Origin: Diphasiastrum complanatum | Taxonomy: Eukaryota > Streptophyta > Lycopodiopsida > Lycopodiales > Lycopodiaceae | DNA: 64,000 nucleotides | Direction of reading: 5' to 3' | Assembly: GCA_029204225.1 (NCBI GenBank) | Contig: CM055113.1 | Location: forward strand, 30,507,524-30,571,523 | Shown: piece by piece, positions 9,494 through 61,098 of the stretch | How positions within the stretch are numbered: position 1 is the first letter of the stretch | Layout: each line of letters begins with the position of its first letter | Program-made: the position numbers and the translations under genes | The notes under the pieces: generated by a model | What the model was told of the DNA's origin: nothing | Database searches by the model: none | What the model saw: the letters and a program-made list of their open reading frames with translations, nothing else

Positions 9494-9548
<55 letters not shown>

Positions 9549-12500
9549 TAGTGGCACGTGGTACCGCCATTATGGTACCGCGGTACCATAATGGTGGTAC
9601 CGCGGTTATGGTGCCGCCCTCAGACCAGCGGTACCAGGGCGACACCACAAAAATAATATTTTTTATTATTAAAAAAAAAAAAAACCCTTTTAACAGGCTA
9701 AAAGTAGGTAAAAAATTCAAGAAAAAAAAGGTTTAGAAAAAAGATGTTACTGTACAGGGGGACTGTATTGGGGGCACTGTGGGAGAGCAGACCTGGTGGT
9801 CAATGGGAGTGCAGCATGTGGGGGGGCAGCAAATTCGGACAGGTACACCGTCACATGGGCACTGTGGGGGAGCAGACCACGGACCCAATCGGAGTGCAGC
9901 ATGTGGGGGAACAATACATGGGGCAGGTACAGTAGCACATGGGCACTGTGGAGGAGCAGACCATGGACCCAATCGGAGTGCAACATGTGGGGGATCAGCA
10001 CATGGGGCAGGTACAATAGCACATGGGCACTGTGGAGGAGCAGACCATGGACCCAATCAGAGTGCATCATGTGGGGGAGCAATACATGGGGTAGGTACAA
10101 TAGCACATGGGCACTGTGGAGGAGCAGACCATGGACCCAATCGGAGTGCAGCATGTGGGGGAGCAATACATCCGGACAGGTACACTGTCACATGGGCACT
10201 GTGGAGGAGCAGACTATGGACCCAATCGGACTGCAGCATGTGGGGGAGCAATACATGGGGCAGGTACAGTAGCACATGGGATTATCAACAAAAGCAAATT
10301 GGGAAACAGGCTGTGGGGTTAAATAGGCACTCACGAGACAGCGAGAGAGCCAGTGAGAGGCTGTGAGAGGCATTGTGAGAAGTTGTGAGGGAGAGCCAGT
10401 GGGAGGCTGTGAGAGAGAGGCATTGTGAGAGGCTGTGTCACAGACCGAGTGAGAGGCTGTGAGAGGGGGGCTGTGAGAGAGCCAGTGAGAGCCATTGAGA
10501 GGCTGTGAGAGGCTGTGAGGGTCATTTCGAGCAACAGGGTGTCGTGAGATGGCGGAGGGCGAAGCCAGGAGGAAGCTCGAGGAAGAGGTCCGAAGGCACA
10601 ACGAAAGGCATCGGAAGCAAGAGGCAGACATTGCAGAGATGCTGCGAGAGACTCGGCAGAGACACCCAGAGCTGCAGATCCCCGCCCCCGCTGTAGCCCC
10701 TGCCCCTGCTGTCGAGCTGGATTTGGATGAGCAGATTGGAATGAACTTCACACGACGGCAGCTCATCATGGTCAGGGAAAGGGCGGCCAGACGTCGGGAT
10801 GACCAGGAGGCAGAGCGAGAGCGACATAACAATGCTCCTGACGAGGGCGTGGAGTCAGTGGAGGATCCATAGGAATGTTTAGCATAGATGGGGTCTAGCC
10901 GTATGTGGCTGATTGTTGTTATGTAATGTTCATCAGTAGATGAGGCAGTATTTAGTGTCTAGCATGGTGTAAAGAACAGCCCCAGCCGTATGCGGCGGGA
11001 ATACGTATTGTAATTTTGATACATCTGATGAATTAATGTACGGTGTGTTATTTGTGCAATGCTTGCCTTGTGTATTGCAATCTGATGTATGTGATTATGA
11101 AATGCTATCAGGGGGGTTGTATTTCTGTGTTCTGCATATGCTCTCAAACTCTATAGTGAAAACTAATTGAAAACATGCACACACCATTTGAAGTAAAACT
11201 GCAAGTAGAACATCACAATTACAAATTGACAAATACACATTGTGCAGTGAATAGAATACGTCCAACACTAAATATAATATGAAAAATGGTCTGAATACCG
11301 TGTTCGACTATCTGGCCGCCAAACATGGAACATGATATCAAACTGCTTAAAATAAAATGATAGAGCTACAATCAATGCTCTGCCTCAAACTCAGATGAAG
11401 GCTCCGGAGACAACTCAGGGCCTCGAGCTGACTCTTGCAACTGATATCTATGTCTGTCTGGTACTGGCATGGGCTGTGTATTTGAGGGGGAAGACTCGTC
11501 ATCCTCATCCTCCCAATCTGCCTCCGCATCAGCCCCCAAGCAGGCTAAACCAACAACACCTGCTGCAGCTGGCTGTAATACTGCACCTCTGCCAGCAACT
11601 GGAGCCCTGCAAGGTCGTCCTCTCTTCCCTGGCAGTTTCTGTGCCCTACCTTTCTTGTTCGGTGCACCCTTGGGCCTTCCTGGCCTCTTGCGGATGAGGG
11701 GAGCCGTCAATGCCTCATCACCCCCATGCAGATCACCTGGCTGACTAGGCTGGGCCTAAGCTGCGGCCGACTGGGATAGAGTAGCTTTGGATGGGTGTCC
11801 CTGTGCAGCTGATAGTGGAGGATAGGTCCGAGGAGTGTGTGCCCGTGGGCCTGCTGCTGGTGGAGGAACTAGATGTGGAGGGGCCGTCCCTGCAGGAGGC
11901 AAGTACAGCGGCGATAAGTACTGAAAGGGGCGCTGTGGTGGACGGTACTGGTACATCCTTGGTGCTGCCAAAGGAGGAGCCGGTGCCGTGGGTGTTGCCA
12001 ATGGAGGAGGATGTGCTGTGGGTGTTGCCACTGGAGGAGCGTCTGTAGATGTGGGTGCTGCAAGAGAAGATCTGGGCACAGATGATGGCCTGCCATGGAG
12101 ACCTGCTGCTGCAAAAGTGGATGGCGATGAAGGGGCTGCAGGCCTCAACGGTATCGGTGGCACTGGAGGTGCTGTGCGGCGCACATACACCCTCTGAGGA
12201 ACTGGAGGAACTGCAGGCACCTCGTGTAGCTGCTCTGGCTGAGACTCTGTGTAGGGCATGCTGGCTAGAGAGGATGGGGGTGCCCTGACGCTCGGCATCT
12301 ACTGGGCCTCTAAATCCAAGTCTGCAATCAAGTCTTCAGCTGGGCATCCGAATACAAATGCTCTGGGCTCTGGGACTCATCATGAGCACCATCCTCTGGA
12401 TCATCCCGTGCCTCATCCTGTGCACCATGCAGACCCTGCATGGCCTCCCAATCGGTACAATCAAAGTCATCTGGTGACTCCTCGGGTGTGCTGTCATAGA

Positions 12501-15500
12501 AATGCCTATGGCTCTGTGATGCACACATCCAAGCAGCTGTGGAAGGTAAACCAATCGCGTCAGGAGCATCAATTCTCTAGGTCCGCAAGAAGTAGACCAT
12601 TGTGGCTCAGTCATCTGCGAAGCAGAGTACGTAGCAGCAACAAAGATGGCCAATGAAATAATTTGGCTCAAACAGTTCCTTGACGAAATGGGCGTATCAT
12701 GACATCAGCAGAAGCTACTGCCACTCTTGTAGTTCGTGATTAGTTGTAGATGTTTAATCTTTTTGATCTGGAAGTTACACGATGCGACACGAAAAAGTTC
12801 GCGAACCATATACTTTCTGCTTGATGCATAATATTGTAAGATGAAAATATACAGAATTCATGTCCACCTGTGAGCGAGACAATTTTGTAAAAGGATCAGC
12901 AGATCCAGAAGTCCGCTAGTGAGCAAGACATTATTCGTGAGAGAATTGTATTTCTCTCACGCCAATGCACTCTGTGGATTTGTCGCACAATGCTTGAAAT
13001 CAGAAGATCAATAGATAATATTGTAGCTGTTATGCGCATATTATTTTGAATGATTGTATGATCTCAAGTGAATATCTGTCTGCTACGATTCGTGTATCTG
13101 ATTCACTTGTTTATTCAATCTTTGCCCCCTATCAGGAGCCTCCTCCATCATATCAAGATAGGAAGGTATGCCACTGGCCCCCCCTGTGTGCCCTGCCCGT
13201 CTCCCAGTATAATCTGTGGCATGTGTCCCACCTCTACCACGTGATGCACCTGTGATCCCTGCTCTAGGTGTGTGCCCAACACCTGTATCATATGCCTCAT
13301 CCCGCTCTGATCTAGCGAACACAACCCGAATGGGCTCATCCTCATCCTGATCATCCTCTGACACTGGCTCATCTGCCTCGTACAATGGAGGCTCTCTGTG
13401 CTCAAGCTCAAGCTCTCTCTCTCTCATCTCGGCAAGCTCCCTCTCTCTCTCTGCCATCAACTGTGTGCCCAGGTCATCTGCAAGCATGGGATGGGTGCTG
13501 TCCGTAGGCAAGTCAACCTGGCGCTCCAAATCATATATCTTCGTCTGCAAGGTTTAAAATTTGCATGTCAGGGAGACAACTCTATCAAGAAATGAAACCA
13601 ACATACCAGGAGTCAACCAACATGCTATGAAAGATTAGCTTATCACCTGCAATGCGCTCGTAATGGTCGGAAGTCTCCTGGCGAGACGTGCGTTGGTGCT
13701 ACAGAACACCAACCGCTCCAATTGACTCACTGACAACCGGTTTCTTCTCCTCGTGTGAATGAGTGCCCATGTGCTCCAATTACGCTCACACACAGAGGCA
13801 GCACAGTCCTGTGGTACGTGCATTGAAATACTTCAGCACATTGTCTTCAACGAAACACAGCAATGGAGGATAAAATGAGATGCATACCTGAGAAAGGACA
13901 CGCAGTGCAAGACGCTGTATAGATGGGTATGTGCTACCGAACATGGTCCACCAGGTAATGGGTAGCTGCCTCCTCTCTGGATCCCGAGCAGCCGGGTGGC
14001 CAAATGTGCCCATGCCAAAACGAAATGTAGCGAGCTCCTCCATGAGCCTGATAGGATCCAAACCAATGTGTGGACCCACTCTGTGAATGTACTGAAGCCA
14101 ATCGGCCTCGAGCTCCCTGTCTGCGATCTGTGTCGGAGAGAGGAAGAGGGGATGCAGTATGTGTGCAACGCTGTGGATACTCCTGTGGCAGTAGTTCCAC
14201 CGCGTCTCCCAGATGAACTTCAGCTCGGTCATCCTGCAGGTGAGAGGCATGTGGTGTAGGGCATTACGAAAAAACTTAACATTGACAGAAAAACAAACTA
14301 GCAATTACTAAAAAGATAAAGGCCAATTACATTACTATACCGCTTACCTCTCTGGCTGCAAGATGGGCAGCTGTAGGAACTGTCCAATCCGGTCCATGAG
14401 CTCATATACCAGTCCAAGTGTCGACCCCTCGCTGTCAGCCATGCGGAGCACAATGTAAAGTGCTCGAAGCAGTCCTGACAATGTCTGTGCATCCCTCCAG
14501 AACTGGTCTCCCCTCATCGTGGAAGAAAAGTGCTCCCCATCCTCAGTGCGCGGAAATGTACTGGCACACCAAAGATCACTGGCAACCATCTGTAGAAGCT
14601 GCGCCCTACCCTTGATCAGACGGTCGATGACCACCAAGTCGAATGCAAAGCGTGTGGGGGCTGGCTTACGGAGGTCTAGATGGCTGAACACCCGGAACAT
14701 GGCAAGAACACGCCTCTTCCTGGTGACTTTTGAAAGTCACCAGGAAGAGGGCCTCACGGACGATGGCTCTAAACCAGGGAAGTGCACCTATGTCCCCCAT
14801 CAGAAGGTCTATGCCGTGCGCGGCACAGGAGGTATGAACAATGTGAGGGAACTCGGCCTCTAGCAGTACACCCATCTGAATGCAGTTCGTGGCATTGTCC
14901 GTCACCACTGTGACGACATGCTGTGGGCCTATGGACAGGATGGAAGACCTGATGACATCAAACATGAACTCTGCAGATATGACTCTCCCCCCCCTGCTGC
15001 AATCCACTGCCCTCAAAAACTGTGTGCCCATGCAGCTGGAGACCAATATGTTGAGGATCGGCCTCCTCCTGACATCTGTCCAGCCATCGGAGATGATGCT
15101 GCAACCGTAAGTGGCCCAGTGGCGACGTAGAGGCTCTATCTCTCTAGACAATGACTCGACCCTATCCCTCAGCATGTGTGTGCGGACAACCTCTGAACTA
15201 GGGACTCTCCAGCTAGGGTTGACAGACTGTGCAAGGCGGAAGGCCCTTCTGAAGGGCTTGGAGTCGGTGATGGCAAATGGAAGGTTCAGCTCATAAATCA
15301 GGCTGGCCACGGCCTGTGTGGCCTCTCTATCCATGTGCGGCTGATGCGCGCCGCGAATGCTCTGCTGCCTAAGAACTCTCCCAGCTGGGCGACGGGTAGC
15401 GGACCTCCAGCACGGTGCACCAAACGTGACGAGAATGGATGATGACGCGACAGGCTGGGCACTAGTGGATGCATCAGCTGTAGACGTGGAATGGGGAGAG

Positions 15501-16603
15501 TGGGATGCACTGGCCGGGATGGGTGCAGCAACGTAAGTGGGGTACACTGGTGGAGGGTGGACATCTGGCATGGGATACGAAAACTGCTGGGTAGGGAGGT
15601 CATCCGGATGTGAAGGGAGGGAGGAAGGGATCTCCTCAACATCTTGGATGGCCTCGTCACTGGCATCCGGGGCCTGCTCCTGCTCGGGAGGTGGAGAGTC
15701 CATGAGAAAGTCGTAAACTGGGGGAGTGCGAGCAACAGTAGGTGGTGGTGGAACCACAGTGGCAACTGGCGGACGCGGTGGGACAGGATCCACCGGAATG
15801 GGTGCAGATGGGGGTGCGTGAGGCGGAACTGTCTGAGAGGGATGAGGGGCAAAGGGACTGGACGAGGATGCACTCCCTCTCCTCGTGCGTGCCAGCCAAG
15901 CAGGCAACAACTCGGGGTCAACCACGTAAGGAGCGGTGCAAAACCGAAGAACACCCTCCGAAATGGTGTTCTCCCCCGCCACAAGACGTGGCTCGTAGGT
16001 ATCCAAAAGTCGCTGCCTGACGGGAACGGACATGCTGGCACAAGGGGCAGCATTCAGTGTGCCACCATCTCTCGCGCGTGCGCCGAGTAGGTGGCCTTTA
16101 AGGCGAGTGAGCGGTGGCAACGAACTCGGTCAGGCAATATCGACAGCGCGCTATCCTTGCATCGGACTTGTTAGACTTGTCGGGAACCTGCCTGACAATC
16201 TCCACCTCGTCCCACAGATCGGCAAGGTTGGAATGCACCATCTCTGTAGAAAGGACTGGGAAAAGAAGGCAGAGATCTCTGTGGGTGCGATAGGAGTTGG
16301 AAGGCTTGAAAACACCACAATAAAGGCCGAAATAGCAATAGCAGGGGAGGACGCGATCAGTGCAATGCGAAGACAGTCGGGAGGGCGCGGACAGTAGGGC
16401 GATGGGCATACAACAGAGAGGGCGCGGACAACAGGGAGAGAGGGCGCGACGGGCAGGGAGAGAGATGAAGCGAGGGGGGGGGATTAGGTTAAAAAAGAAA
16501 ATATTGATATATTAAATAATAAAAAATAATATATATTGTGGTACCGCGGATCAGTATGGATCCGCGGTACCGGGATCCGCGGATCCATACTCCGCTGGAT
16601 CTA

Positions 16604-16657
<54 letters not shown>

Positions 16658-19600
16658 CATAGTTGCACCGCGACTCGCGAATCGCGATTTAGAATCGCGA
16701 TCAGAATCGCGATCCCGATTCGCTATTCGGGATTTTCCCAGAATCGTGTAGAATCGAAATTTTTTTTTTTTTTTTTGCAATTTTTTTGTGCAATATGGGT
16801 ATTAGATGAAAGCTCTGATCGAGGGTGATTGTGTAGTTTACCGACTGTTTCAGGTGCAGGATGGTCCCTTTACGCTAAAGCTGCATCCCATATAAAAAAA
16901 AGAGAACACATTGGGGCATTCCTAGTGAACATAGCAGGAATCTCCCTTTCTCTGATTCTCGCTCTCTCTATCTCTCTGATCACGATTCACAACAAACGGA
17001 ACTAAAACCATGCTGAACAAAAACCTAGCTGAATCATTCTGAACTTTAGCCTTAAATGAAACAATTTTTGACAAAACAACCATACTCTCTCTCTCTCTCT
17101 CTCTACAACCATAAATCATAAACCATAAAACCAAAGTTACTGAACTAAAACCACAAAGAACAATACTGAATCACGACAATGCTGTGAATAGGATCATCAT
17201 AATATATAATATCGGGCCACATGGCACCAAAAAGGGGTACAATGATGTTCCATGAATGTAATGAAAACTATACGGCTCGTCAGAGTCATGGTAGGATAAG
17301 TCATCCGAATCTGTGGACTGCAGATCCCATGGGTCCGCAGATGAATCGGAACTGGAGGGAGCCATATGTTGTGGTGTGGCCCTGGCTCTGCTGCGTGCTC
17401 TGGATCCCTGCTGCGTGCCCTGGCTCTGGACCACCCCCCTCTCCCTGCCTCTACCTCTGCCTCTGCCTCTGCCTCTCTCCCCTCCTCTGGCCCCCATCTG
17501 GCTGCCCCCAGCCCTGTGTCTACTCCGTCGTGCCTGTGTGTCAGGTGGCCGTAACCCTACGCCCTGGGATGGCCCTACCCACTGTGATGATGCCTGGCCG
17601 ACGACTGCCTGTGATGCTCCACTCCTGTCTACAAAAAGAGTACTCAGCCCCCCCCTCCTAGAACCTCTAGGTCTCCCCCTAGGCCTACGTGCAGGAATGG
17701 CTGGTTGCTCCTCTGTCTCTGCATCAGGGTCCACCAGTAGGTCAGCCAGGTCATCCCCCTGTGCCTCCGCCCACATCTCCTCGTCCTCCTCTGTATCTCC
17801 CTCAACCCACTCCTCCTCCTCCACATAGTCTACCCCGAGCATCTCTCCACCCTCCGAGACCTCGTCATCTCCCTCCTCAGCCCTCTCCCTCTGCCTCTCT
17901 GTCCTCCTCTGCCGTCGTAAAGCCCGTGCGTCAGCCTGTGCCTGTTTGTAGAGCTCTCTATGGATCTCATCATCCATCTCCTCCTGTGTGGGTGGTGCCC
18001 GAGGAGCAGCAGCTATCGAATCCACCAAGCAAGTGTCGGGGTCCACCTGCAACCAAAAACAATACATTGTTGTTAGGCAGGTATTGTGCAACTCACTGCA
18101 TATTTTGAAAGCAAATCAATTCACCAAAGCATACCAAGAAAAAAGGGGTGATGATGTGACTCACCTCGAGCATCTGACCCTCTCCTCGTGTGCGCCTCAG
18201 CATACGGCCGTTGGTGTTCACAAACACCAACCGCCTACACTGCTCGATGGACAACCTATTCCTCTTCTGCGTGTGATACAAGGCCCAGGTGCTCCAATTC
18301 CGCTCACAAGCTCCTACAGAACAGTCCTGTGCAAGGACTCTCTCAGCCAATCGCCTCAGGTCACCTGTGCTGCGCCCGTGGATGCACCACCATGTAACGG
18401 GCCTCAGCTGACCTCCCTCCGCCGACCCTGCTCTCCATCGAAAGGAAACTGGAAGCGCTCAAATGCGAGCAGCTGGCTTGCAATGTTGTTTCTTGGGTTA
18501 GTTTCATTTGCGACAACGCCCACCAGACGCAAGCAGGAAGTCAAAAGTTGGAGATGGCCATTTCAGGGAGATCTTCTATGGAGCAGTTGGTCTTTATTTT
18601 GGGACGGCCACCTTCGGAACTGAAACTCACTGAGCATGGGCAAAAGGAAAAACATGGCACATGTAAGACCCCTCAAATTCAGACACTACCAATGAGTACA
18701 ATACTGCAGTAACATTGCTACCAAATGATTTCTCACACGTACCTGGTCCGGGCCATACGCGCTCCGTGTACTCCACCCATCCCCGGTGCAGCTCCGGATC
18801 GTCCCTCTCTCGTGTAGAGTGCCACAAGGGGTGTAACATGTGGGCTACGGCGTGGATGGGTCGGTGGAAGTAGTCAGTCCATCTGGCCTCCCAGATGCAT
18901 GAGATCTCGCGCCTCCTGCAGCAGACAAATTACAACAATCACTAAACCATAGCATAAAAGAAACCTATCAGACTCGAGTGAGAAACAACAAACTAGACAC
19001 TGAAGAGTCATACCTATGCTCGTCCAAGGCTGACAACAGAATCCCCTCGCCGATGCGCTCCATGAACTCGTAAATGAGACCGAGGGTGCACCCCTCACGG
19101 TCTACCAGACGCAGCACTCTGTAAATGGGTAGTAGGATCCCACTAATCTCCTCAGCAGCTCTCCAGAACTCGTCGTCGTACACAGTGGACTGGAAAAATG
19201 CCGAATGGGGGAGGTCTGTAAAGTCCCGGAAGGCCACGCTGGAAACCATCCGCCGCAATGCATCCTTCACCACCACCAATCGCTCTAGCACCAAGAAGTA
19301 AAACGCAAAGCGTGTGGGTGCGGGCTTCTTCAGGTTTAGGGTGGAGAAGGTGCGGAACAGGGCCAACACACGCCTCTTCCTGGTGACAAAAGTGACCAGG
19401 CGCATGGCCGTAGAAGTGATCTGCAACACAAACACCCAGTAAAAAAGTTTAGACAGTAGTTGAGACGTGGTTAGCAGCATCGAAGGAAGAAAGCATAGCA
19501 AATAGAACAAACTATACCTCTCTGATCCATGGAAGCGCACATAGGTCATGGATGAGCAAGTCTATGCAATGTGCAACACAGGGTGTCCACACAATGCAGG

Positions 19601-21866
19601 GGTGCTCCCTCATCATAATCTCGCCCATCTGCTTGCAGTTCGAGGCGTTGTCGGTGACAACCTGAACCACGTGCTCATCTCCGATGTCAGCAATAACATC
19701 TCTAATGACCTCCCATATGAAATCGGCTGTGATGGCGTCACCACCTCGAGTGGCATCCACGCCACGTAGGAATACTGTGCCAAGCGGGCAAGAAACCAAG
19801 ACATTGATGACGGATCGCCGACGAATGTCGGTCCATCCATCGCTCAGTATCGTGCATCCATACCTGTCGCAAAACACCCATTAGCTACATGCAAAAATTA
19901 CGGCACCAGTAAATCCTAAACACATGCAAAGAGATTACAAAGACAAGTTACTTACTACTGCCAAGCTGAGCGAATGGAACTCAACTCCCGCGTGATGGTC
20001 TCCTCCTCCTGACGAAGCAACCTGCCTCGTAGTGCCTCTCGCCTGGGAGGTGTCCATGTAGCATCCACGGCCGCCATGTGTGCACAGAACTCCCTGAACA
20101 CCCAAGTGTCAGCAACAGCAAAAGCAATGCCGCACTCGTAAAAGAACTGGCCACACAGTCGAGTGCAACGGGCCTGCTGCTCTCTCTGCCAGCCGCATCG
20201 ATCAAGGGTCTGCTGCCTGGGCCTAACCCCTCTCTGCTGTGTATATGGTGCTCGTGGTCTGGCATGCCCAACGGATGGCTGATCTGTGGGTGTGTCACTC
20301 TCTCTGGCAACATCTGCCGAAGCATGTGGTGCATCTGCTGCCGAGGAGGAGGGTCGAGAAGCACCCGCTGCTGCTGAACCAACATGCTCATCTGATGGTC
20401 CTGCTGCTGCTGCGGATGGAACTGAAGGTGCTCTACTGGGCCTTGCACCTAAACCATGCTCTGCCCGTGTTGTACTGGGCCCTGCAGCTGTACCATGCTC
20501 TGCCCGTGATGTACTGGGCCCTGCACCTGTACCATGCCCAACCCATGATGTACTACGCCCCGCAGCTATACCATGCCCTGCCCGTGATGTACTGGGCCCA
20601 ATATCCATGGTAGGCCCTGCCTGTCTGCCTGTGAGCCCTCCTGCATGCCTACCTGTAGCTGCTCCTGCTGCCTGTCCCTGTCTAGAACCCTGTGATGCAG
20701 TACCGGGCCCGTACATGGTAGACAACCTCTGCAGATCCTCATCAGAAATCCTGGGGCAATCATATATGCCCAATGTCCGCCCATCTGGCCCTCTGACCCG
20801 TAGCAAGTGAGCCCTAACCCTGGTGAGTGATCCCGTGAAGTGACCACCGCAATGCAAGCATCTCCATCTGCGGGTGCCTGAGCCATGGTGTGTGCCCACA
20901 TCCCCGTCGGTAAGCTCAACCTCGGCCCAAAGGCCTCGGTCCCGCACTGGCATCGTATCAACACGACCCTAAACCTGCAAACAACAAATAATCAGGCAAA
21001 CGTTCAGTAGAAAAAAAAATACATTGCATTGAACAACATTACCGAGCTCAAATAGAGCTCAAAATACCAGAGCATACATCAGAACGATTTCAGTTCACAC
21101 ATTATATCAAGTGCCAAAGAAGAACATGAGATTAGGGCGTGGGATAGAATAATTTCTGTATGAGGGATAACAGGCGACTGACGTTAGCGTCGGAGTCCGT
21201 GCAGGCATAAAGGAGTGCAGTGTGGGCCTAAACCGCGCCCCTAGCAGATGTTTGCACGATGGTCCACGCCTAAACCCTAAAAAGTATGGAATCAGGGCAT
21301 GAAAATTGAAATTTGTGATACGGACGTAGACGGCGGAATGGAGGTCATAGGAGTCTGTGCAAGCATGTGGAAATGCATTCTAGGCTCAGACATCACCTCA
21401 CTCGGTTTCCAACAAGCCATTATGTGGAAATGGCCAAAATACACAAGCATTTGGAATGTGGTGTTCAAATCTCGCTAGGCGTGTCGTGACGGCTAAAACT
21501 GATGCGGTAAAAATCACTGTGGGCGTGAAGAAAGGTGGTCTAGAGCCAGACTACGCTCGATTTGGTTGCCTACAGCTCAATGTCAACAATTGCAAAAAAT
21601 CAAGCCTACACTTACCAAATATCGAAATTTGGTCGTTTCGCTCTCCACGAAGCTCAGACCCACCCGGCACCGTGCACACCAACTTCGTATCGTCGAGTAG
21701 ATGCCTGCCAAGTATTCACTTGCGAAGATTGGACGCCCACGGCTCTCAGAAAAAAAATTTGCCTCCTCCACTGCTGGCGCGGTTCTGTGCGCGAGGAGGA
21801 GGCCGAAAATCGGGTTTTTTTTTTTTTTTTTTTTGGCGATTCTGTCCACGATTCGCTGCAACTATG

Positions 21867-41534: not shown

Positions 41535-41567
41535 AATCTCAATGGCAAATGCACACACACACACACC

Positions 41568-41634
<67 letters not shown>

Positions 41635-41660
41635 TCAATGGCAAATGCACACACACACAC

Positions 41661-41715
<55 letters not shown>

Positions 41716-44703
41716 CGCGAACAGACCCGTTCGATTGGAAATCGGGTTTAGGGCCCAGCAGACGGTTCGAACCGGGTCCGAACGATTCGATGGTTCAAAC
41801 CGTGAGAGGCGGTTCGATGCAACCTTGGAAGGTGCCCTTCACTTAATGATGGCAGCCTGATCTAGATCTCTTCGGTGAAGATTCTTGCTTGTGTGGGTTC
41901 TTGCAATCCCTAGATTTTTGTTTTGTGTGTGTGTGCGTGTGTGATGAAAAACCAACATTTGGTTTCAAAGCCTAGTAATTTTCAGTTGTGAATCCCCCTT
42001 TTTAAGTAGTCTAACAAAGGCTTTAAAGTACATATGTTGTGTTTGTGTGAGACAGAAGTCTAGAGAAGCTTGTGTAATGTCTGGAGAAAGAGGAAGAAAC
42101 CCTAGATATCAGGATTTTTAAGGGAAAAAGAGAGAACATGTTTGAATTCTAAAATCCTCATCTTGTAGTGTTACCATCATTAGTTTCTGTTGGTTGTGCA
42201 TAAGGAAAGTACAACAATTGTTGTTTTGTGCTCATTGTTGAGAAACTCTAGGATAGGGTAAATACTATGTTAATAGTTGTGTGGGTTCAAAAGTGGGTTA
42301 CAACAAAGGGGAGGTGAAAGTAAAGGCTGTACAATCAAATTTACAAGGACATGAAGTACAAGTGTACTTCGGGCTAATACAAGTCAGGTACAACAATTTG
42401 ATACCTCTTGTTACACAAGTCTCATCATTGCTGCACGACTTTTCAGCAAAAGGTAAAGTTTTTTTTTTGTTTTCAGACTCATTTCCTTTAAACATGGGAA
42501 GGAAAGTGTTGTACAGGGTATTAAAAAAAATACAAGGCTGCTGTGATCAGCTCCTGAAATTGGGACAAGAAGTAGCCAAAAATTGGGTCTTTTGACGAAA
42601 AATTAGGCTTTTTGGACATTTTCAGACTTTGAAGGCTGAAGATTATGAGTATAGGGACTAGTTAAAGGAACAAAAAGAGACCAAAAGTACAAGGGAAACT
42701 GTTGAAGAATATGTAGAGGGGGGGAGTAGTTTTTACAAAATGAAGGGGGAGGAAAGTGTAGGAAGTAGAGAGGGTTCCCAAGGTCGAGTGGCGCTCTGAG
42801 TTGAAGGTAAGCAAAAAACAAAAAGCAGAAAGGATACGTATAAGCGGGCAAGCAAAAATCTTGCAAAAATAAGAAAAGTCAAAAACGGAAAACTTTTTGC
42901 AAAACACACCAAGTGTAATTACATTTTTATAGTGCTCATCTAGGAGCTGGTAGGCTCGCTTGATGTGCTCATTTCTTTAAGTAGCAGCACTCAAGTCAAA
43001 AGGGCTGGTTATAGCAATGCCAAGCTGATGCGAGATGAATGACTACTAAAAGCTCCTTATCATAGGTGGAACACCTACACTGCGCATGGTCTAGCTTCTT
43101 GCTTTCAAAAGCAGTCGGTCTACCTCTTGATAAAGGGCCGCTCGTACAACATAGTCACTACCATCCGTTTCTACAAAAAAAGGGCCTTTCAAGATCGAAT
43201 ATGTTTAAAATTGGGGCCGTAGAAATACAATGCTTGAAAGTTTCAAGACACTCGTTCATTTAACTAGTCCAAAATGCAGGTGGACTTTTTCTACTCCTAC
43301 ACTTTGTTTTCACTTCGTTAAGAACGCTCGTTAAGGGCAATGCTATTTTATCATATTCCAGAATGAACTTGTCAAAATTTTTTGTGAATCTAAGGAATGA
43401 TTTGACATCATGATTGTTTGCGGTTGCGGCCATTCTCATACTTCACGAACCAATGTTTTATGGTATCTTTCGAATCGCCTTTTTGAACCGTGTTTGAATC
43501 GAGTTTGAGTCGAGAAAGAATCGGCTTCTCCAGGTTCGAACCGGCCAATCAGTTTTAGGTTTTTTTTTTTTAAAACATTAATGTCACAACATACATATTA
43601 CATATTACATATGTCATATTCCAATGTACGTGCATGGTTAGTTAGTGGTAAATTAGCAAATGTTCGATGATTCGAATTTCACAAAACTGACAATGTATAC
43701 AATGTGCATTGTGTAACTTTTAACTACTAACAAGTAGTAGATTATAGTACTAAGTTCTAACTTCTAATAGCTTACAAGTGACAATACTAAGTAGTAAGTA
43801 CTAACTTCTAAATATTAACCCTTGAGTTAAAACTTACCGTAGTCTGTGAGTACAAATCCCATTCGACATTCAACATTGATAATTGAAACATTCCACATTT
43901 GAACATTACCAAAATGTAAACTTGTTACCTGATTCTTGAATCATATATGTAGTTTTAACTCATCCATAAATGCCAAATGGTAATAACACTGTACACATGA
44001 TAACAAATTTACTATCTGCTAGTAACTAGTCTCAAGTTTATAATCTCAAAACTTCAAAGTTCAAAGTCAACTCCTGATTTCTATAAACTAACCAAAATAC
44101 TAAATACTAAATATTAAATGCAAATGGGCCAGTCTCCTAAGTCCTGGGACCTAGACCAAGGCAAACTAAAGCCTAACGTAGCCTCCTCCTAGTCACCCGT
44201 GGAAGTTGTGACCTCCTCGCATGTGCAGGCTCAGGAGCAGGATCCTCGTCAATGCTATCAACATCATCAGATGGATCACTCTCATCCTCTGAGGAATCCT
44301 CGCTGTCGGCTTCATCTTCCGAGGTCTCTGTGTCGTCTTCGTCTTCTAGTGGCTCCTCGTCCTCGAGGGCTCGAGAATTGGAAGCCTCCCCCCCTGTCCT
44401 TCGACGTGCAGCAGCCTGTGTGGTAGGTCCTGCACGTAGGTTGAGAGTTAAAGCACTTAATGATGAGCTAGCATGCATTGATGATAGCATAAAAGAAGTA
44501 GAACTTGTGCAAGTTGTGTTTAATGGCATGTCATAGGTCTGCTATCTACCAAACTTGTTGTAGACTGCCACGTGGCAAGCCATGTAGGCCTACCCCATGG
44601 CAAGTCATGCAAGCTTGGGGTTTGCCACGTGGCAAACCACGTAGTTCTAACATAGGCTTGTGTGGCAAGCCAACCAGGCTTTGCCACATAGGCCTGAGTG
44701 GAC

Positions 44704-44784
<81 letters not shown>

Positions 44785-46804
44785 GGGCTCGAAAGTTGCC
44801 ACATGGCAAGCCACGTAGGCTTGCCACGTGGAAAACCATGTAGCCATATGGCAAGCCACGTAGGCCTACCATAGGCCTGTGTGGCTTGCCACATGGCCTA
44901 CCATAGGCTTGTGTAGTAGGACACATAGGCCTACTATCTACCAAGCTTATCATGGGTTGCCACATGGCAAGCCACGTAGGCCTGCCACATGGCAAATCAT
45001 GCAAGCTTGGGGTTTGCCACATGGCAAGCCATGTAGGCCTAGCAAAGGCTTGTGCGGCAAGCCAATCGAGCTTTGCCATGTAAGCCTGTAGGCTTGCATG
45101 GCAGACCGCATAGGCATGGCATAGGCCTCATGTTTGCCATGCAAGCATGTTGCAGGTTGCCACATAGGCAAGACAACTTGTTAGTGACTGCAACAAACTT
45201 GTTAGTGATGTAGTTCAGAAGAAATCCATGGAATGCCAATCTACTTGCTTCTGCTGAGAATGAGGAGCAAGACCATGGGGAAAGACTTCTGAAATGTGTA
45301 CTCAGCTTTTGTGGAAGCTATGACTGTGTGATGGGCTTCAGTGGGAGCTGCCTGTGTGTTATGAGCTCTTAAGATCGATTGACTGTGATCAGATCACAAT
45401 CACAATGAGATACTTACCACATAGTCGGTAGTCACTCATAGCAAATGCATTTTAGCATACAATCAAGTGGGAATGTTAAAGAAATAACATGTGCCATGCA
45501 GATTAGGTTTCTTTAGGGCACCTTAAGTTGTTTTAGGTTAACGTAGGTATGTGTCCGCAATTGCTTCATCTCAAACGTTGTATGAATGGCACAGAGTTGT
45601 GTCTGTTCCTTTAAGAGACACGACGTTTTGTCTCTTCACTACTATGTAATGAGCTGTTGCCCATGCACCTATCAATTCAATTTACTGTTGTTTAGTTACT
45701 CTAGGCTTGCCATAGGCTTGTGGCCAACCAGGCTTTGTCACGTAGGCTTGAGTGGACCTAGAGAGAGAAAGAGGTGGGGCTCGCAAGCTACCACATGGCA
45801 AGCCACGTAGGCTTGCCACGTGGAAAACCATGTAGGGTTGGTACTTCCCATGTCGTAAGCCATGTAGGACTACCATAGGCTTGTGTAGCAGCCCACATAG
45901 GCATGTCATAGATCTACTATCTGCCAATCTTGTCGTAGGCTGCCACGTGGAAAGCCACATAGGTCTACCACGTGGCAAGTCCTGCGAGCTGAGGGTTTGC
46001 CAGTGGCAAACCACGTAGGTCTAACATCGGCTTGTGTGGCAAGCCAACGAGGCTTTTCCACGTAGGCTTGAGTGGACCTAGAGAGAGAAAGAGGTGGAGC
46101 TCAAAAGCTGCCACGTGACAAGCCACGTAGGCCTACCATAGGCTTGTGTGGCTTGCCACATGGCCTACCATAGGCTTGTGTAGCAAGCCACATAGGCCTA
46201 CTATCTACCAAGCCTGTCATAGGCTACCACGTGGCAAGTCACGTATGGTTGCCACATGGCAAATCATGCAGGCATGGGGTTAGCCACTTGTAGGCCCATG
46301 ATAGGCTGGCAAGCCAACCAGGCTTTGCCTACGTGGTCTGCTATCTGCCAAGCCTGTCGCACACTACCACGTGACAAGCCACGTAAGTCTACCACATGGC
46401 AAATCATACAAGAAACTTTGAGCAGTATCAATAGACAGGAAATCAACTGCTCTTGACAAAACCTTTCTATTGATACCCATGTTGGCATCGTAAACCTTTT
46501 TTTTTGATACCCAAATTGGCTCTCCTAAACTTCGGCAATTTCATTGGCTTTCCAACAGTTTCATTGCCAACTGTATAGTGTGCACAATATTTAGCAGAAA
46601 TAGGGCCGATACAATTAATTATTATCTGACGAAAACAGGGTCTCTGTAGTGTTTACTTTTGTTTTGAAAAACCACCATCAGATCGCCCATCACTTTTGCT
46701 GCAATTTGAATACCATATTGCCGAAAAAAAAAATAGGCGTTCCGTGGTCACGTTTTGGGACAATCCTGGAACGTGTTCCAAGATGCGTTCCGGAACGCCT
46801 TATC

Positions 46805-46850
<46 letters not shown>

Positions 46851-47551
46851 TTGCACATAATCGCGTTTCTGGGAGGAGATGTTTCGGAAACCGCGTTTCT
46901 GAGAAACGCGTTTCTCCTCCCAGAATCGCAAAAAAAAAAGGAATTTTTTTTTTGGAAAAATAGCTTATGGCTGAAATTTTTTTAGGGGATCAATGGTCAA
47001 ACGAGCGTTTTGCCTCTCAGAAGTGCAGTAGATGGGGCACAAACAGATCTTATTTTCAATAGCTATTTGGTTGTTATTTGCTCTGGTTTTCATTAAATGC
47101 TCAGGGGATTCGGGGGGCGGTAGCCCCCTGGTGGGGGGTTTGGGGGGCAACGCCCCCCAACGGCACGGTCCAGGGATTGCTGGTAGACCCCGGCCCCGAC
47201 GGTAAGGCCTCTTCATGACTTGGCCTTCCACTCCCTGAGCGAAAACACACTTACTGGGACCATCTGTGATCGTAACAGACATGCTAGAGGTTAGTTTTGA
47301 ATTTTTATCCTTGACAGAACCCAACATGGGTTAATGCACATGAACTGGACCATCTTGCACCCGAAACAGTCGGCAAATTACACAGTAATTATGCTCTTAA
47401 TTAGAGCTTTCATCTGATACCCATATTGCCCAAAAAAAACCCCAAAAACAAAATTAAAAAAAAAATGTTTCTGGAATTTTATCAAAAATTTCCGAAACGC
47501 GTTTCAGAAATGCGCGATTCTGAAACGCGTTTCAAAAATGCAGTGCAACTA

Positions 47552-47594
<43 letters not shown>

Positions 47595-50500
47595 GGTCCG
47601 GGCCGGAATGCCGGCGTCCGGCGTCCGGACCCGGACACCGGACGCGGACGCACCCCTGGCGCGTCTGTACGCAGACGCGCGTTCGCGTCTGCCATCCACC
47701 TCCTTAGATATATCAGACATGAGGGTCTGGGCCGGAATGCCCGCGTCCGCGTCCACGTCTGGCGTCCAGACCCGCACGAATCCGACCCCGGATGTGGGGT
47801 CGGACGCGTCCAATTTTTTTTTTTTTCAAACTAAAATTAAAAAAAAAGAAAACAGACGTGTCCGGGTGTCCACGCGTCCGGGGTCCGGACTCCATATTTT
47901 AGCTACAGCTCAGTTTACAAATAGGACTAAAAAAGACATGGATTTTGGGCTATATGTCCAAAGCTACAGTTTCAAGCCGTAATGACTGAAACTAACGGCG
48001 TAGTCATTCATGTACATGAGAAAAGTCTGTTCACAATTAAAATAAAACCACCCCAAATCATTGCGCCTACATGTTGTTCTTTACATTTACCAAAAGTCAT
48101 ATGTAGGCTTACCCAAAATCAAAGTTTGATGCTTTCTTGCTCCACACTGGCTTGCTGTGCCTGCCACCGTGCCCACTGCATTGAATAGATAATCGCGGAA
48201 TGCTCAAACATGTTGATCTGTGCCCTAACCAAAAATTTCCAGCATTCTCTCTCTCAGAAAATATGCACACAGGATTGGAAAAATTCCATTGATATTTACT
48301 AGAACTTGAAATAGTGTAGGGTGCAGGTACCGTACCAGGTTCCGTACCAAGGCACATGTGCCATGGTATGGCACCTGCATTTTTTTTTTGGTTTTTTAAC
48401 CAAATTTATAAAAAAAAAATTCCACACATGCCGTGGGTGCCGTGGTACTTCATGGTACCGAAGTACCACGGCACCTGTATGGCACCCACGGCATGTGTGT
48501 GTTACCAGGTGCCTTACCACGGCACCTGGAACTATGGGACTCATAATAGATTTGAAAATAAAGATAGTGGACTGTTCAGCAAAATATGTGTTTTTGTGGT
48601 AGTATTTATTGCAATTTAGCGTTTTCCTTTTTATGTGCATGCAGGCAGAGAAAGGTACAATCATGAAGTCTGTGGGGGTCGTGGAGGCTAGTCCAGACAT
48701 GATTTTTGAGACCATAATGAGTTTGGACAAGTCTCAACGATATCAGTATTGTTCAAACTTGAAATTTCTTATTTTTGGATTCTTCATTGTTTCATTTTCT
48801 GTTTGGATCTGATTGTGAAAGTATTTTGAAATTAGATCATTTGAATTTTTATGCATGAACTTATATATATTGCAAGATAAGTCCAAATTCGTGCAGCATT
48901 ACTCAGACATGGAAAGTATTGACTTATGGAGAAAGTTGAAGGGCTTCATGATCAATCATTGTTATATTGAAGGACTGCTAGCTTTTGAGTTTAAAGAATG
49001 TTACAAAGGAAAGCCTAAAATAGCATTGATATTACCCAAAAGTGATGATCAATAAATGTGCTATTCTAATCTCAAAAGAGGCTTTTTAATGTTTCAGGCT
49101 TTCAAGATTACATCTATTAGTGGAAGTGAATTGCTGTTAGATACAGACTTAATTTTGATGCTTTTTTGAAGGTGGGATATTTTGACTGGAGATTTGGAAT
49201 ATGTTGAGGAAATTGATGGACACACTGACGTTGTATACGGTACCTTTGATCCAAAGTACTTAAAAAGGTGAGTTGGAGCTCTCTGCCTTACCAGGAAACT
49301 GATTCTTGTAGTGCTTTTTGAATGAGAAAGTAGCCTCAGAAGAAGAATCTACTATTTACTTTCCTTGTTTCAGAAAGGCTAAAATTTGAAGATTTAGACA
49401 ATGGTGTAATTCTCATGTGAATCGTGCAAGTTTCACGGTTAACCTTTACAAGCTGGATTATATTACTTTATACTTGTGAATCTGGACATATTTCTATGTC
49501 AAATTCTTGCAGTTGTCAACACAAATATTTTTGCTGTGTATCTTGCTTACATTTGATGTTCCTCTCCTGTTGAAAGTTTAGCTTTAGAGAGCAGCTTCTT
49601 GTAGTGATCTTTATTTCTTTGTTTCAGATGGAACTCTTTGTTTTATGTGAAGAGAGATTTTGTTTTCCACCGCTATTGGAGACGTGACCAGGATGGCTCT
49701 TATTGTAAGTTACTAGGATGACTTTGGGATTTGAAAGGAGCTGGGTGCTCGAAAATAATTTCTTTTCAGTCCTTTGGCCTCAAGCGCTGCATGAGTCCTG
49801 TTTCTCAATATGAAGCTGTCTGCCTGATTAAGTTTTTGATTGTGAATAATTTTCTACTGTGGAACAGTAAATGCTAGATGAAAGATACTCATACTTGTTA
49901 GTTTTGTGAATGTTCTTGTTTCATGCAGCTATAACACAGATATCTGGCACACATAAAAGTCGTCCTCCGAAGCAAGGGTTTCGTCGGATTGCTCTAAATC
50001 GTATGTTTAAGATAGACCTTATTATTTTTACTGTTCAGGTGTATGTTGCTTGCACCAAACAACAAAAGTGGACTAGTTCGGGTTGGCTGAGCCGATGATA
50101 TATAAGCAAAAGAGTGCAGGTTGCATAGTAGACTTATTTGGGCAGAAATATTTTATCAGGATCTAGTTTAGATATCCAAATTTTGACAAGTTTTCTATGC
50201 TATTTGTTGCAGCGGGAGTGTGGGAGATAGCTCCTCTTCCAGCCCGATCTGGCATTAGTACTCCAAGATCTCTTGTGACACAGATCATTGAGATTAAATC
50301 CACGGGGTGGGGTCAATGGAAAAAAAGTCACTATTCAAAGTTTCACACAACAGTTCCATATGCTTTACTTTCTCGAACAGCAGGTGCTCTTTCCCTAAAT
50401 GTTTTCATATCTACATCTACATCTGAATTGTCAAAGCATAGCATTAGCTTGCATTCCAATAGGTCTTTTTCTTTTTTTTTCTTTGGTTGAAATCCATAAA

Positions 50501-55866: not shown

Positions 55867-57328
55867 AATTGGGAGCATTGCTTTAGACTAGCAAGATTAG
55901 ATCTTCAATACAAAGGGAAGGTCTCTTTTTATAGTTGAGAACTAGACCTAATTTTACTACCTCCCCTTACTTCCAAATTCAAATATTTGCTGGTAATGTG
56001 ATCACTGGGTTGGACTCATAGTTGCACCTCCATTTCAGAAACGCGTTTCTGAACCGTGTTTTTGAATGGGGGAGTGTTTCTCAGAACGGTTCTTTTTTTG
56101 GGGAGGGGGATTTTTGTGGGCAATATGGGTATCAAATTAACGCTCTGATCACAGGCATTGCATTTTTATAGGTTGCCAGGTGTTTTGGTTACAGTTGGGT
56201 TGGTTACAACAAAATTTTAGGGCAAAAAATATATATAATTTGTTTTATTTTTGGCATGATTTTGCTCCTAGAAACATGTTTTTGGGAACGTTATTGGTCT
56301 TACACACGTAGGGTTCCAAATCCCTCACACTTGTTTGCTAAGAATTGTATAGATATATACTTGTTTGCTAAGTTGGAAAAAGGTGATTATTCAGTCGCGA
56401 AATAAAATTCTGTCTGCTCCAGGAAAAGCGTAGATACCGATTCGCTTGCGTAAAACCTGATGCTTTATTTGTTGATGATAAGCAAGAACATGGACTTACC
56501 AAATTTTCAATAATAACCATAAGGGTCTGGTGGCCACTTTTGATAACGTTGTTCATTGACAAATGGGTAGTCGGCAGCACCATCCAAAAAAGGATCCCAA
56601 GATAATGCTTGTTGATCCTCGTAGATAAGTGCATCTGCCACTGGCATTGTTGAAGTTTTGAATGCACAACACTGAGGATGAATTTTGGTTTATGACAACT
56701 ACAGTTTTTTTTTTTTTGACAATTTCAAAAATTTGTAACGTGCTCATTACTTAACGTAATGTAGAAAAAAATATATCTCCAAAAAGCCCTTTTAATGTTC
56801 TACACTCTATCTACTAAGATCAAATTAAGAAAAACAGAAAGTTGGAAAACAAAAAGGATCAAACATGGCAGAAAAATAAATAATCTGGAAATTTTTGGTT
56901 TATGACAAGTTTACAGAATTTTCTTGCCAACCTCAAAAAATTTGTAACTTGCTCATTACTCGACGAAGTCTAGAAAAAATTATATCTTCAAAAAGCCCTT
57001 TCAATGCTCTACAACTCTTCCTATTTAGATCGAATCACAGAGAACAGGAGGTCATGCAAAAAATGAATAAAAAAGGGCATAAAAATTAAAAAATAGAAAA
57101 TGCAGTCCCCACTCATTTTTTGAACGTTTTTAAACATAATAATTGCAAATCACATCCATAATGCAAAGCTAAGCCTAGCAAATGCTAACAAGCAAGATGA
57201 GAGTGCATTGCTCCCCGGCAACGGCGTCAAAATTGTGGGGCGCTTGCCTGTCACGACTTGTAGTAGTTGCGTTCTCAAGGGAGCATGACCTCACCTTTAA
57301 CCTATTAGTAGGAGAAGGAAGAGTGAAC

Positions 57329-59741: not shown

Positions 59742-60204
59742 GTACTGTGAGATTCTCATATTTATTTTATGCTACAATTTTAAACGAATATGGCCCAACA
59801 TTTTTAAATATCATGATAGTGTGAGAAAGCCATTTTTTCAGATTATAGATAGAACCTGATCCATGGTAACGGTAGGAGATGCTAATAGCCATTCCTAGGT
59901 AACTGGTGGCTGAAGTAAGATGAAGTAGTGCTGAAAAGGACATTTGCAAAAGATTGAAAAGGAAGATGTCTTTTTCAAGCATAGTAACCGGCAAATGCAT
60001 TTGCTGCTGTACATTTTAAAAAACAAGTATGAACTTCCAAGTCAAGTATAATTGAAAAAAATGCTTGAAAATTTTCAAGTTTTTGTAGCCTACAGCCTGC
60101 ACATAGGTACAGTGTAAGCTGTAGCATAATGATTTATCACTAGTGGTTGCAAAGATAATTTGAATTTAGTGTAAGTTGTAAGGCTATTTTTTACTTATGT
60201 GTTA
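59742..60204. other. Start of the last intron
   Basis: No exon or repeat was recognised. The next DUF1336 exon must lie beyond the window. Confidence 0.55.
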
Positions 60205-60310
60205 TGGAATGAGCCGAGCAGATGACATTCTGCCCAGTATGGGCGAGGCCCAAAGGGGCCGAGACTATGATTCTTTACCGGGCAGAATGTTATCTGCCCG
60301 GCTCATTCCA
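60205..60310. mobile_element. 106-bp foldback element (MITE-like)
   Basis: Arms of about 35 bp: tggaatgagccgagcagatg at the left is complemented by catctgcccggctcattcca-like sequence at the right, with about three mismatches. The loop is about 36 bases. It would fold into a long hairpin when intron 17 is transcribed. The flanking tta/ttg is too short to define the family. Confidence 0.75.
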
Positions 60311-60331
60311 TTGCTTAATGCATAGTTGCTG

Positions 60332-60475
60332 CTTTTTCACATGACCATTATGCAGTAGAATCTGCATTTGAAAAACATAATCAACGTTTTCAAAGCTGAG
60401 CCTTTTTCACAACCGTTATGAAGCAGAATTTGCATCTGAAGAACATAATCAATGTTGAAAACAATGGTTTCCCGC
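60332..60475 (+). repeat. Two tandem ~70-bp repeats
   Basis: ctttttcacatgaccattatgcag... and ctttttcacaaccgttatgaagcag... are successive diverged copies next to the foldback element. Confidence 0.75.
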
Positions 60476-60877
60476 CCATTCTGCTTTTTAAGCAGTCTAA
60501 AAATGGGTAGAAAATGCACAGTTATGCATCACATGTAATATAGCTTGTAAGAGGTACTTTCTTCCTACAAAAAGAAGGGTATTTTCAGAGCAATGTTTGT
60601 GAATGCCCCCCCTCTCCCCTTGCAAGCTTGCAAACATTTGCATTTACATGTTTGCCATATTTGTTTGTAACTATGCTTTCAAGTGTCAAAAAATGAGTGG
60701 AGATGTTTGGTACATGTAACAATTGATTGTGTATCCATAGGATATTCAATCTTTAATCGAGGTAAATATCCATTGCCCAAAATGGATGATTTGATAGATA
60801 TCTTGGTCATAAATAAGATCACCCCAAAAGGTTTGAAAAGATAGAAAAAGATAAGATCAAGGCAATCTTGACATAGT

Positions 60878-61098
60878 TGCATCAAACTTCGGTTCGAATC
60901 GCCTACCGCGGTTCAAACCTTCGAACCGTTACGGGCTGATTTGAACCGGGAACTGGTTCGAACTGTTTTTTGGCCCCCTAAACGAAAAAACAAAAAACAA
61001 AAAAAAACGGTTCGAACCGTTTCCCGATTCGAACCTAGCTAGCCGGTTCAAATTGGTTTGAATTGAGATGAATCGGCTGATTCAAATCGGCGTGTAAG
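60878..61098. mobile_element. 0.22-kb mini-element with GGTTCGAACC words
   Basis: The left end is catagttgcatc. Word arrays at 60890-60970 and 61008-61090 flank an A-rich linker. It has the same word as E3 and the same bare plan as the element at 48316. No coding region. Confidence 0.6.

What the first reader, a model, noticed from the sequence alone, without database searches (positions are those of the whole stretch)
9547..61098. hAT-like elements whose terminal word arrays differ from copy to copy
At least eight elements or element ends share an end (CATAGTTGCA, or CAAGGTTGCA in E3). Immediately inside, each carries an array of a short, mostly self-complementary, CpG-containing word, and the word is specific to the element: GGTACCGCGG (E1), GAATCGCGAT (E2), GGTTCGAACCGG (E3, 60878), GAAACGCGTTTC (E5, E7), GCGTTCCGGAACGC (46738), GCGTCCGG (47592), GTGCCGTGGTACC (48316), GCAATCCGGG (644). 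Known hAT transposases bind short subterminal repeats, and binding can be methylation-sensitive. My inference is that these arrays are transposase-binding sites diversifying between subfamilies, perhaps together with the BED finger. I know of no description of such rapid word turnover at otherwise conserved ends.
Basis: partly seen in the sequence, partly recalled or inferred. Interest (0 to 1): 0.85.

Follow-up and report, generated by a model that had tools for sequence, protein, structure and literature searches.

The report
Family-specific palindromes at hAT transposon ends
A large genome carries many related jumping genes whose ends share similar tips but carry different short palindromic DNA words just inside them, probably the docking sites of each family's own transposase, and some copies look caught halfway between two words.

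Summary
The window lies in a 1.74-Gb genome rich in hAT elements with a DUF659 transposase, CATAG-type tips, 8-bp target duplications and a terminal ~100 bp of short, mostly CpG-containing palindromes. The arrays exceed chance, are strongly self-complementary, and the two ends of an element carry like words. Of ten places named, eight carry the tip; 46738 and 47592 do not.

Words are mostly family-specific and largely follow the transposase: related words at 64-78% identity, a one-position difference at 90%. One exception: A/B and F share AAACGCGTTT at about 49%.

In one lineage the word changed while neighbouring sequence did not. GAATCG- and GAAACG-type ends are as alike inside between classes as within (10 ends); both are abundant (2,038 and 1,098 places). 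An intermediate family carries hybrid palindromes (GAATCG|CGTTTC), yet its BED helix equals that of the GAATCG element, so helix residues alone do not explain the change.

Binding was not tested. Precedents exist: Hermes BED on a quasi-palindrome, CGG-binding hAT proteins, VANC motifs. Verdict: new variant of a known kind.

The parts
9547..16605 (-). E1, family D hAT element (7,059 bp); palindromes GGTACCGCGG/GGATCCGCGG at its ends; inserted in a (TA)n run; ORF 14666-16129 with DUF659 (E 1.9e-39) and ORF 13786-14304 with a sub-threshold hAT dimerisation match
9557..9656 (+). E1 left array, including the 28-bp perfect palindrome CCATTATGGTACCGCGGTACCATAATGG
16658..21866 (-). E2, family E hAT element (5,209 bp), GAATCG words at both ends, in a (TA)n run; BED-like ORF 19955-20968, DUF659 region about 19515-19868; 119 scored matches to the ORF in the genome (itself included) at 94-100% identity, out of 10,695 candidates
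32262..41827 (-). E3, family H hAT element (9,566 bp), tips CAAGGTT[GA]CA, GGTTCGAACCGG-type words at both ends, exact 8-bp duplication GAAGGTGC on both sides; decayed transposase about 39163-40865, no BED finger found
46846..47553 (.). E5, short element of the F lineage, GAAACGCGTTTC at both ends; the left end looks like a hybrid-word F 5' end; (TA)n flanks
56017..56126 (+). E7 end: CATAGTTGCA followed by CAGAAACGCGTTTCTG and the conserved inner sequence GCAATATGGGTATCA; far end not found
60872..61010 (+). end with CATAGTTGCATC and GGTTCGAA-type words; far end not found
644..730 (+). end with CATAGTTGCA and GTTCCGGAA/CCCGGATC words (G-like); related array at 1282-1360
48316..48536 (.). short element or end pair, tip CATAGTTCCA at 48536, GTGCCGTGGTAC/GGTACCG words; hairpin z -9.0 for the 48536 end
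59980..60675 (.). element not listed in the finding: tips CATAGTAACC / CATAGTTACA, palindrome GCAAATGCATTTGC (no CpG) at the left end, CAAATG-type words at both; duplication TTTTCAAG/CTTTCAAG (one mismatch)
46738..46805 (.). GCGTTCCGGAACGC array without a CATAG tip seen nearby (not confirmed as a member)
47592..47890 (.). GCGTCCGG-rich arrays with another tip (CATGAGGGTC-like), not of this end type

Best explanation
These are ends of several related hAT transposon families. The outermost 5-10 bp are the cleavage tip. The next ~100 bp is a cluster of half-sites, mostly NNNNCG, often arranged head to head as palindromes, to which pairs of transposase subunits bind, most likely through the N-terminal BED-type zinc finger. 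Each transposase lineage reads its own word, so an element must carry that word at both ends.

As lineages split, word and transposase drift apart together. A word can change step by step: one half-site changes first, giving a hybrid palindrome that the old finger still tolerates, and then the partner half follows. Because the arrays are long self-complementary stretches, copying of one arm from the other during replication may help both halves change together.

Shown: arrays, palindromy, likeness of the two ends, family-specific words, hybrid words, equal inner sequence across two word classes. Inferred: binding, the role of the BED finger, the order of changes, arm copying.
For: Palindrome cover 15.2 vs 0.73 vs 0.93 bp per 100 (41 ends). 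Over 8 complete elements, left and right arrays of one element are more alike (mean 0.53) than left-right pairs across elements (0.19), 9 of 40,320 permutations; own pair is the best match in 4 of 8, and in the other 4 the best match is an element of the same or a near word class. Transposase classes: A-B 78%, C-D 64%, E-F 90%, other pairs 44-61% in a 116-aa DUF659 stretch (G not included), and words largely follow: A/B share CAAACGCGTTTG, C/D share GG[AT]ACCG, E/F share GAA[AT]CG, G has CGTTCCG. Genome counts of tip + word: GAAACGCG 1,396 and GAATCGCG 2,755, reversed-pattern control 0 for both. In the first 69 Mb of C1, neighbouring ends less than 8 kb apart face each other in 32 cases, against 4 back-to-back and 3 same-way. 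Hybrids: E ends 36:1 GAATCG:GAAACG (9 ends), F 5' ends 19:24 with 5 hybrid words (8 ends), F2 ends 3:29 and no hybrid (7 ends). Inner 110 bp equal within and between word classes (50 of 120 labelings reach the observed difference). Precedent: two Hermes BED domains bind a quasi-palindrome cooperatively (PMC10368747, passages); motifs of 4 hAT-encoded CGGBPs match their own subterminal regions (PMC8097297, section 3); Ac transposase binds subterminal AAACGG (PMC3260210, passages).
Against: No binding data. The BED finger is recognised by motif only: best Pfam zf-BED match E 0.16, below cut-off, 1 of 5 proteins scanned; the PDB search found only generic zinc fingers and other zinc proteins. E2 and F share one helix window but differ in words; C and D nearly so, and their arrays score only 0.07. 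A/B and F share the core AAACGCGTTT (array similarity 0.15-0.21, as high as E-F at 0.21) although their transposases are only 49% identical. The Mantel tests are weak (248 and 92 of 5,040) and not corrected for descent. No BED was found for family H, and no transposase-bearing copy was read for pure GAAACG (F2). The E/F inner-sequence test has 10 ends and 110 bp. One presumed pair (L016 5148-9860) has no matching duplication. The shifted-flank control for duplications gave 4 hits over 4 offsets, against 4 real ones under the same one-mismatch rule, so only the exact cases are strong. In the E/F pairing on C1, 21 of 32 pairs have equal class, permutation p 0.08; family F carries different mixtures at its two ends. 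In Ac/Ds most Ds1 elements lack the AAACGG hexamer and some still move (PMC3260210), so such words need not be essential.
Confidence: 0.65

Rival explanations
1. Structure first: the terminal 100 bp is kept as a fold-back (hairpin or cruciform) and its sequence is free to drift in compensated pairs; the words are by-products of stem maintenance, for instance by template switching.
For: Ends fold far better than shuffles: mean z -4.5, 28 of 41 below -3; inner stretches -0.1, 0 of 35. F subgroups carry matched arm changes GGGAGGAG/CTCCTCCC versus GGGGCTGAG/CTCAGCCC, perfect in some copies and imperfect in others (my reading). Template switching is reported to create and keep RNA hairpins (PMC8794818, search listing only).
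Against: It does not predict like words at two ends 0.7-9.6 kb apart, nor that words largely follow the transposase. 13 of 41 ends fold weakly (z 0.2 to -2.9), among them all 4 H and both G ends.
Confidence: 0.15
2. The words are targets of another element- or host-encoded protein, for instance an anti-silencing factor like VANC acting on CpG methylation, and not of the transposase.
For: All eight quoted words contain CpG; VANC motifs form arrays that vary between related elements (PMC5735166, abstract and one section). E2 and relatives carry a second ORF (17171-18115).
Against: The arrays sit within ~110 bp of both tips, as hAT transposase sites do; no VANC-type domain appeared in the six window ORFs scanned. 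The 59980 element's palindrome has no CpG. CpG positions in the arrays changed no more than others (A: 3 of 69 CpG cells against 71 of 751; F: 14 of 139 against 98 of 716).
Confidence: 0.1
3. Separate families whose ends merely share a short tip, with words fixed by descent; no turnover of note.
For: Most words are fixed within a transposase family.
Against: The transposases are homologous (44-90%), the tips grade into each other, and E-word and F-word ends share inner sequence, with hybrid intermediates.
Confidence: 0.1

Closest known systems
Hermes (hAT) left end, STR1-STR2 bound by BED domains (PMC10368747, passages read)
   Different: One element, one word set; here at least seven families in one genome with different words, plus hybrid words; binding untested here
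CGGBPs and hAT-19-like transposases (PMC8097297, abstract and section 3 read)
   Same: hAT N-terminal domains of diverse specificity, usually with CGG or CGC; motifs of four transposases match their own subterminal regions
   Different: There, proteins from many species measured by array; here, word diversification at the ends within one genome, seen from sequence; membership in that subfamily not tested
Maize Ac/Ds (PMC3260210, passages read)
   Same: Shared 11-bp tips, 8-bp duplications, subterminal AAACGG repeats bound cooperatively by the transposase; several non-autonomous classes with one tip
   Different: One hexamer described for the family, dispensable in some Ds1; no palindromic arrays that change by class in the passages read
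VANDAL/VANC motifs of Arabidopsis (PMC5735166, abstract and one section read)
   Same: Short motif arrays that change together within an array and between related elements, tracking an element-encoded DNA-binding protein; C- and T-type motif variants resemble the A/T switch seen here
   Different: MULE elements (recalled), arrays in introns and upstream regions, anti-silencing protein rather than transposase

Membership tests
hAT superfamily | 8-bp target site duplication | tested here: met
   Exact in E3 (GAAGGTGC) and L026 (GTTCCAAG), one mismatch in L036 1878-2615 and 59980-60675; uninformative in (TA)n for E1, E2, L017; control 4 hits in 4 shifted offsets under the one-mismatch rule
hAT superfamily | Transposase with hAT-type catalytic region (DUF659) and C-terminal dimerisation domain | tested here: met
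   DUF659 E 1.9e-39 in E1, 2.1e-48 to 6.4e-41 in L030, L040, L046; dimerisation domain only sub-threshold in E1 (18.5 bits against 21.4)
hAT superfamily | N-terminal BED zinc finger | tested here: inconclusive
   C..C and R..HLL motif invariant in A-F, G by eye with S in place of R; best Pfam zf-BED match E 0.16, below cut-off; not found in the H copies read
hAT superfamily | Short terminal inverted repeats | tested here: met
   CATAG/TATAG/CAAGG-type tips at both ends of the 8 elements examined
hAT elements with BED-read subterminal sites (Hermes/Ac-like) | Transposase binds the subterminal repeats | not testable with these tools
   Only sequence evidence: likeness of both ends and covariation
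CGGBP/hAT-19 group | CGGBP1-type BED plus Hermes DNA-binding domain | not tested
   No model of that group was run
VANDAL/MULE with VANC | MULE transposase and VANC protein | tested here: not met
   Six window ORFs scanned against Pfam gave DUF659/hAT and weak chance matches, no MULE or VANC-type domain; other ORFs of the elements were not scanned

The most novel reading that the evidence does not exclude
Word turnover runs through hybrid palindromes: a half-site changes by an A/T switch while the transposase finger stays the same, the array is then brought into register (by arm copying or selection), and the finger adapts later. The genome would thus hold a frozen series (GAATCG family, hybrid family, GAAACG family, and more distant words) from which the recognition code of hAT BED fingers could be read.
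Probability: 0.3. Interest if true: 0.75.

Novelty: new variant of a known kind. Interest (0 to 1): 0.55.

Why it matters
How a transposase changes the DNA word it reads without losing its own ends is an open question. Here one genome offers at least seven transposase lineages with distinct words, over a thousand copies for each of the two words counted, and a family with hybrid words. That makes the recognition code of BED fingers and the order of changes testable.

Tried and rejected
Mantel test of arrays against BED or helix identity: positive but weak and confounded. CpG decay inside arrays: CpG cells changed 3 of 69 in A arrays and 14 of 139 in F arrays, other cells 71 of 751 and 98 of 716, so no CpG-decay signal. 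PDB search with the BED alignment: only generic zinc proteins. Looking for a BED in E3 relatives: none. A scan for any CA[TA][AG]G near a palindrome was too loose: 156 hits from 3,774 sites against 100 from 2,047 for the reversed word, so no enrichment; dropped. The organism was not established. Counts for CATGG + CAAACGCG and CATAG + CAAACGCG were asked repeatedly and never answered; a count for the inner anchor alone (two mismatches) did not complete. Treekit did not run (wrong argument). The statement that such turnover was not seen in print rests on searches in an open-licence library (listings only; not all hits listed); subscription papers are missing.

Rows dropped: of 20 DUF659 loci, 14 gave a recognised 5' tip and entered; L029, L038, L040, L043, L045, L047 did not (L038 and L040 entered by their arrays). 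Of 8 F copies fetched, L057 and L063 showed no F 5' tip and were left out of the end counts; of 4 E ends, L067 showed no array. Of the anchor hits, 11 ends were used and 10; L028 5459, L045, W46519 and W46485 were left out as lacking the array or clear inner match, and L017 1993 is the same place as L016 9693.
Full report
Setting. The window lies on contig C22 of an unnamed 1.74-Gb genome in 5,176 contigs. Copia-, Gypsy- and LINE-like reading frames fill much of it (recognised by eye). The listed elements carry a DUF659 transposase (E1, E 1.9e-39), and the genome holds many such genes (150 scored of 10,620 candidates, many with an open frame of 672 aa).

Anatomy. A typical end is: 8-bp duplication, tip CATAGTTGCA or a variant, ~100 bp of words, a T- or A-rich run, then the interior. 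Exact duplications were found for E3 (32262-41827) and for a 1,025-bp element in L026, and one-mismatch duplications for two more. E1, E2 and L017 lie in (TA)n runs, where the duplication cannot be judged. The shifted-flank control gave 4 hits in 4 offsets under the one-mismatch rule, so I lean on the exact cases.

Is the array more than chance? In 41 ends that I picked from window and fetched loci, palindromes of at least 10 bp cover 15.2 of 100 bp just inside the tip, 0.73 further in, and 0.93 in shuffles. The first 110 bp fold as single DNA strands far better than shuffles (mean z -4.5; 28 of 41 below -3), while stretches 150-260 bp in do not (mean -0.1; 0 of 35). The sample is not random: of 22 CATAGTTGCA sites in the 20 C1 stretches, 8 had an array, and of 20 DUF659 loci 14 had a recognised tip.

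Families. DUF659 copies with about 2.4 kb upstream (20 loci) and later fetches give seven lineages with a readable finger. A: tip CATGGTTGCATTC, word TCAAACGCGTTTGA. B: tip CATGGTTGCAACC, word CCAAACGCGTTTGG. C: tip CATAGAACC, word CCACGGTTCC. D (E1): tip CATAG[AG]TCC on the transposase side, word GGTACCGCGG. E (E2): tip CATAGTTGCAGCG, word GAATCGCGATTC. F (L011 and relatives): tip CATAGTTGCAC[AC]G, mixed GAATCG and GAAACG. G (L071): array of CGTTCCG, tip not found. H (E3, L069, L070) has tip CAAGGTTGCATC and word GGTTCGAACC, but no finger was found. Thus E3's CAAGG tip is shared by 3 copies and is a family trait, not decay of one copy.

Words largely follow transposases. In a 116-aa stretch of DUF659, A-B are 78% identical, C-D 64%, E-F 90%, and other pairs 44-61%. 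Array similarity by shared 6-mers is 0.43 for A-B and 0.21 for E-F, but only 0.07 for C-D, although the C and D words align at 8 of 10 positions; and A-F and B-F reach 0.15 and 0.21 because they share the core AAACGCGTTT, although those transposases are about 49% identical. Helix windows before the zinc histidine are GGPQRIVS (A), GGLQRVVS (B), STLTRLKG (C), ATLTRLKG (D), GSLTRVRA (E2 and all 8 F copies read) and NTLTSVRA (G); the choice of window follows the Hermes contacts. Correlation with arrays is r 0.53, 92 of 5,040 permutations, and with the whole finger r 0.50, 248 of 5,040. Seven related families are few, G rests on one end, and descent is not removed.

Both ends agree. For eight complete elements the word content of the left array matches the right array of the same element (mean 0.53) more than that of others (0.19), 9 of 40,320 permutations (5-mers; 11 with 6-mers). 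The own pair is the best match in 4 of 8; in the other 4 (E2, E5, L017, the L036 element) the best match is an element of the same or a near word class. The two ends lie 0.7-9.6 kb apart. Local satellite drift or hairpin upkeep alone does not predict this; a protein that must read both ends does.

Turnover inside one lineage. E- and F-type ends share the inner sequence GCAATATGGGTATCAGATGAAAGC or close variants. Among 10 such ends (3 E, 7 F; one G-like end set aside), inner identity within classes exceeds that between classes by only 0.002, reached by 50 of 120 labelings, and the nearest relative of two of the three E ends is an F end; half-sites just outside are 12 GAATCG to 0 GAAACG in the E ends and 1 to 16 in the F ends. 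Genome-wide, GAATCG precedes this anchor at 2,038 places and GAAACG at 1,098, reversed-pattern control 0 in both; some ends count twice. On C1, of 127 anchor ends with either half-site in that zone, 67 have only GAATCG, 55 only GAAACG, 5 both. So the same interior goes with either word, and rarely with both.

Intermediates. In 9 E ends the half-sites are 36 GAATCG to 1 GAAACG; in 7 F2 ends 3 to 29 (two of these seven are the ends of E5, whose left end looks F-type); in 8 F 5' ends 19 to 24, with 5 hybrid 12-mers GAATCGCGTTTC or its complement, against none in E or F2. Two F subgroups also differ by matched changes in the two arms of their array (GGGAGGAG/CTCCTCCC and GGGGCTGAG/CTCAGCCC; perfect in some copies only, by eye). 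In the first 69 Mb of C1, 32 neighbouring end pairs face each other: 16 E-E, 5 F-F, 11 mixed; 4 pairs are back to back and 3 point the same way; equal class in 21 of 32, permutation p 0.08. I read this as a word changing one half-site at a time under a finger that tolerates A or T at that position. The direction is not known.

Mechanism. Hermes offers the model: two BED domains bind a quasi-palindrome cooperatively, with contacts from the loop and helix before the zinc histidine (PMC10368747, passages). In CGG-binding hAT proteins specificity is diverse, usually with CGG or CGC, and motifs of four transposases match their own subterminal regions (PMC8097297, section 3). Ac binds AAACGG repeats cooperatively, though most Ds1 elements lack them and some still move (PMC3260210, passages). 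That each family here reads its own word with its BED finger is inference, as is arm copying by template switching (PMC8794818, listing only).

What is new. Subterminal repeats and diverse hAT finger specificities are known, and VANC motifs show rapid array change in another superfamily (PMC5735166). Four searches listed no paper that I could recognise as describing palindromic word arrays diversifying across hAT families in one genome with hybrid words. I rate it a new variant of a known kind.

Noticed in passing
window 9500-9546, 16606-16657, 21867-22050, 46810-46845, 47554-47590; L017, L048: Several of these elements sit inside (TA)n microsatellites, which suggests a target preference in part of the families.
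   Followed up: partly
window 59980-60675: A 696-bp element with CATAG-type tips, a one-mismatch 8-bp duplication and the CpG-free palindrome GCAAATGCATTTGC.
   Followed up: partly
window 17171-18115: Second ORF of E2, 3' of the transposase, with an AT-hook-like RPRGRPRGS stretch (recalled motif); relatives in L011, L016, L017.
   Followed up: no
window 47592-47890; L048 850-950: Another repeat kind with GCGTCCGG arrays and CATGAGGGTC-like tips, next to (TA)n; different tip, similar style of array.
   Followed up: no
G000:C22:30076990-30078000: A copy of the E2 ORF, 100% identical over 337 aa, lies about 450 kb from the window's copy on the other strand.
   Followed up: no
L012, L014, L020, L021, L027: CATAGTTGCA also occurs in one repeated coding-like context (flank tgaactcatgga), so the raw genome count overstates hAT ends.
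   Followed up: partly
G000 contigs C1-C23: Nineteen contigs whose lengths I saw, numbered up to C23, are 42-102 Mb long in 1.74 Gb; recalled and untested, this would suit the lycophyte Diphasiastrum complanatum (23 chromosomes).
   Followed up: no
window 43486-43545: A lone stretch of GGTTCGAACCGG-type words without a recognised tip.
   Followed up: no
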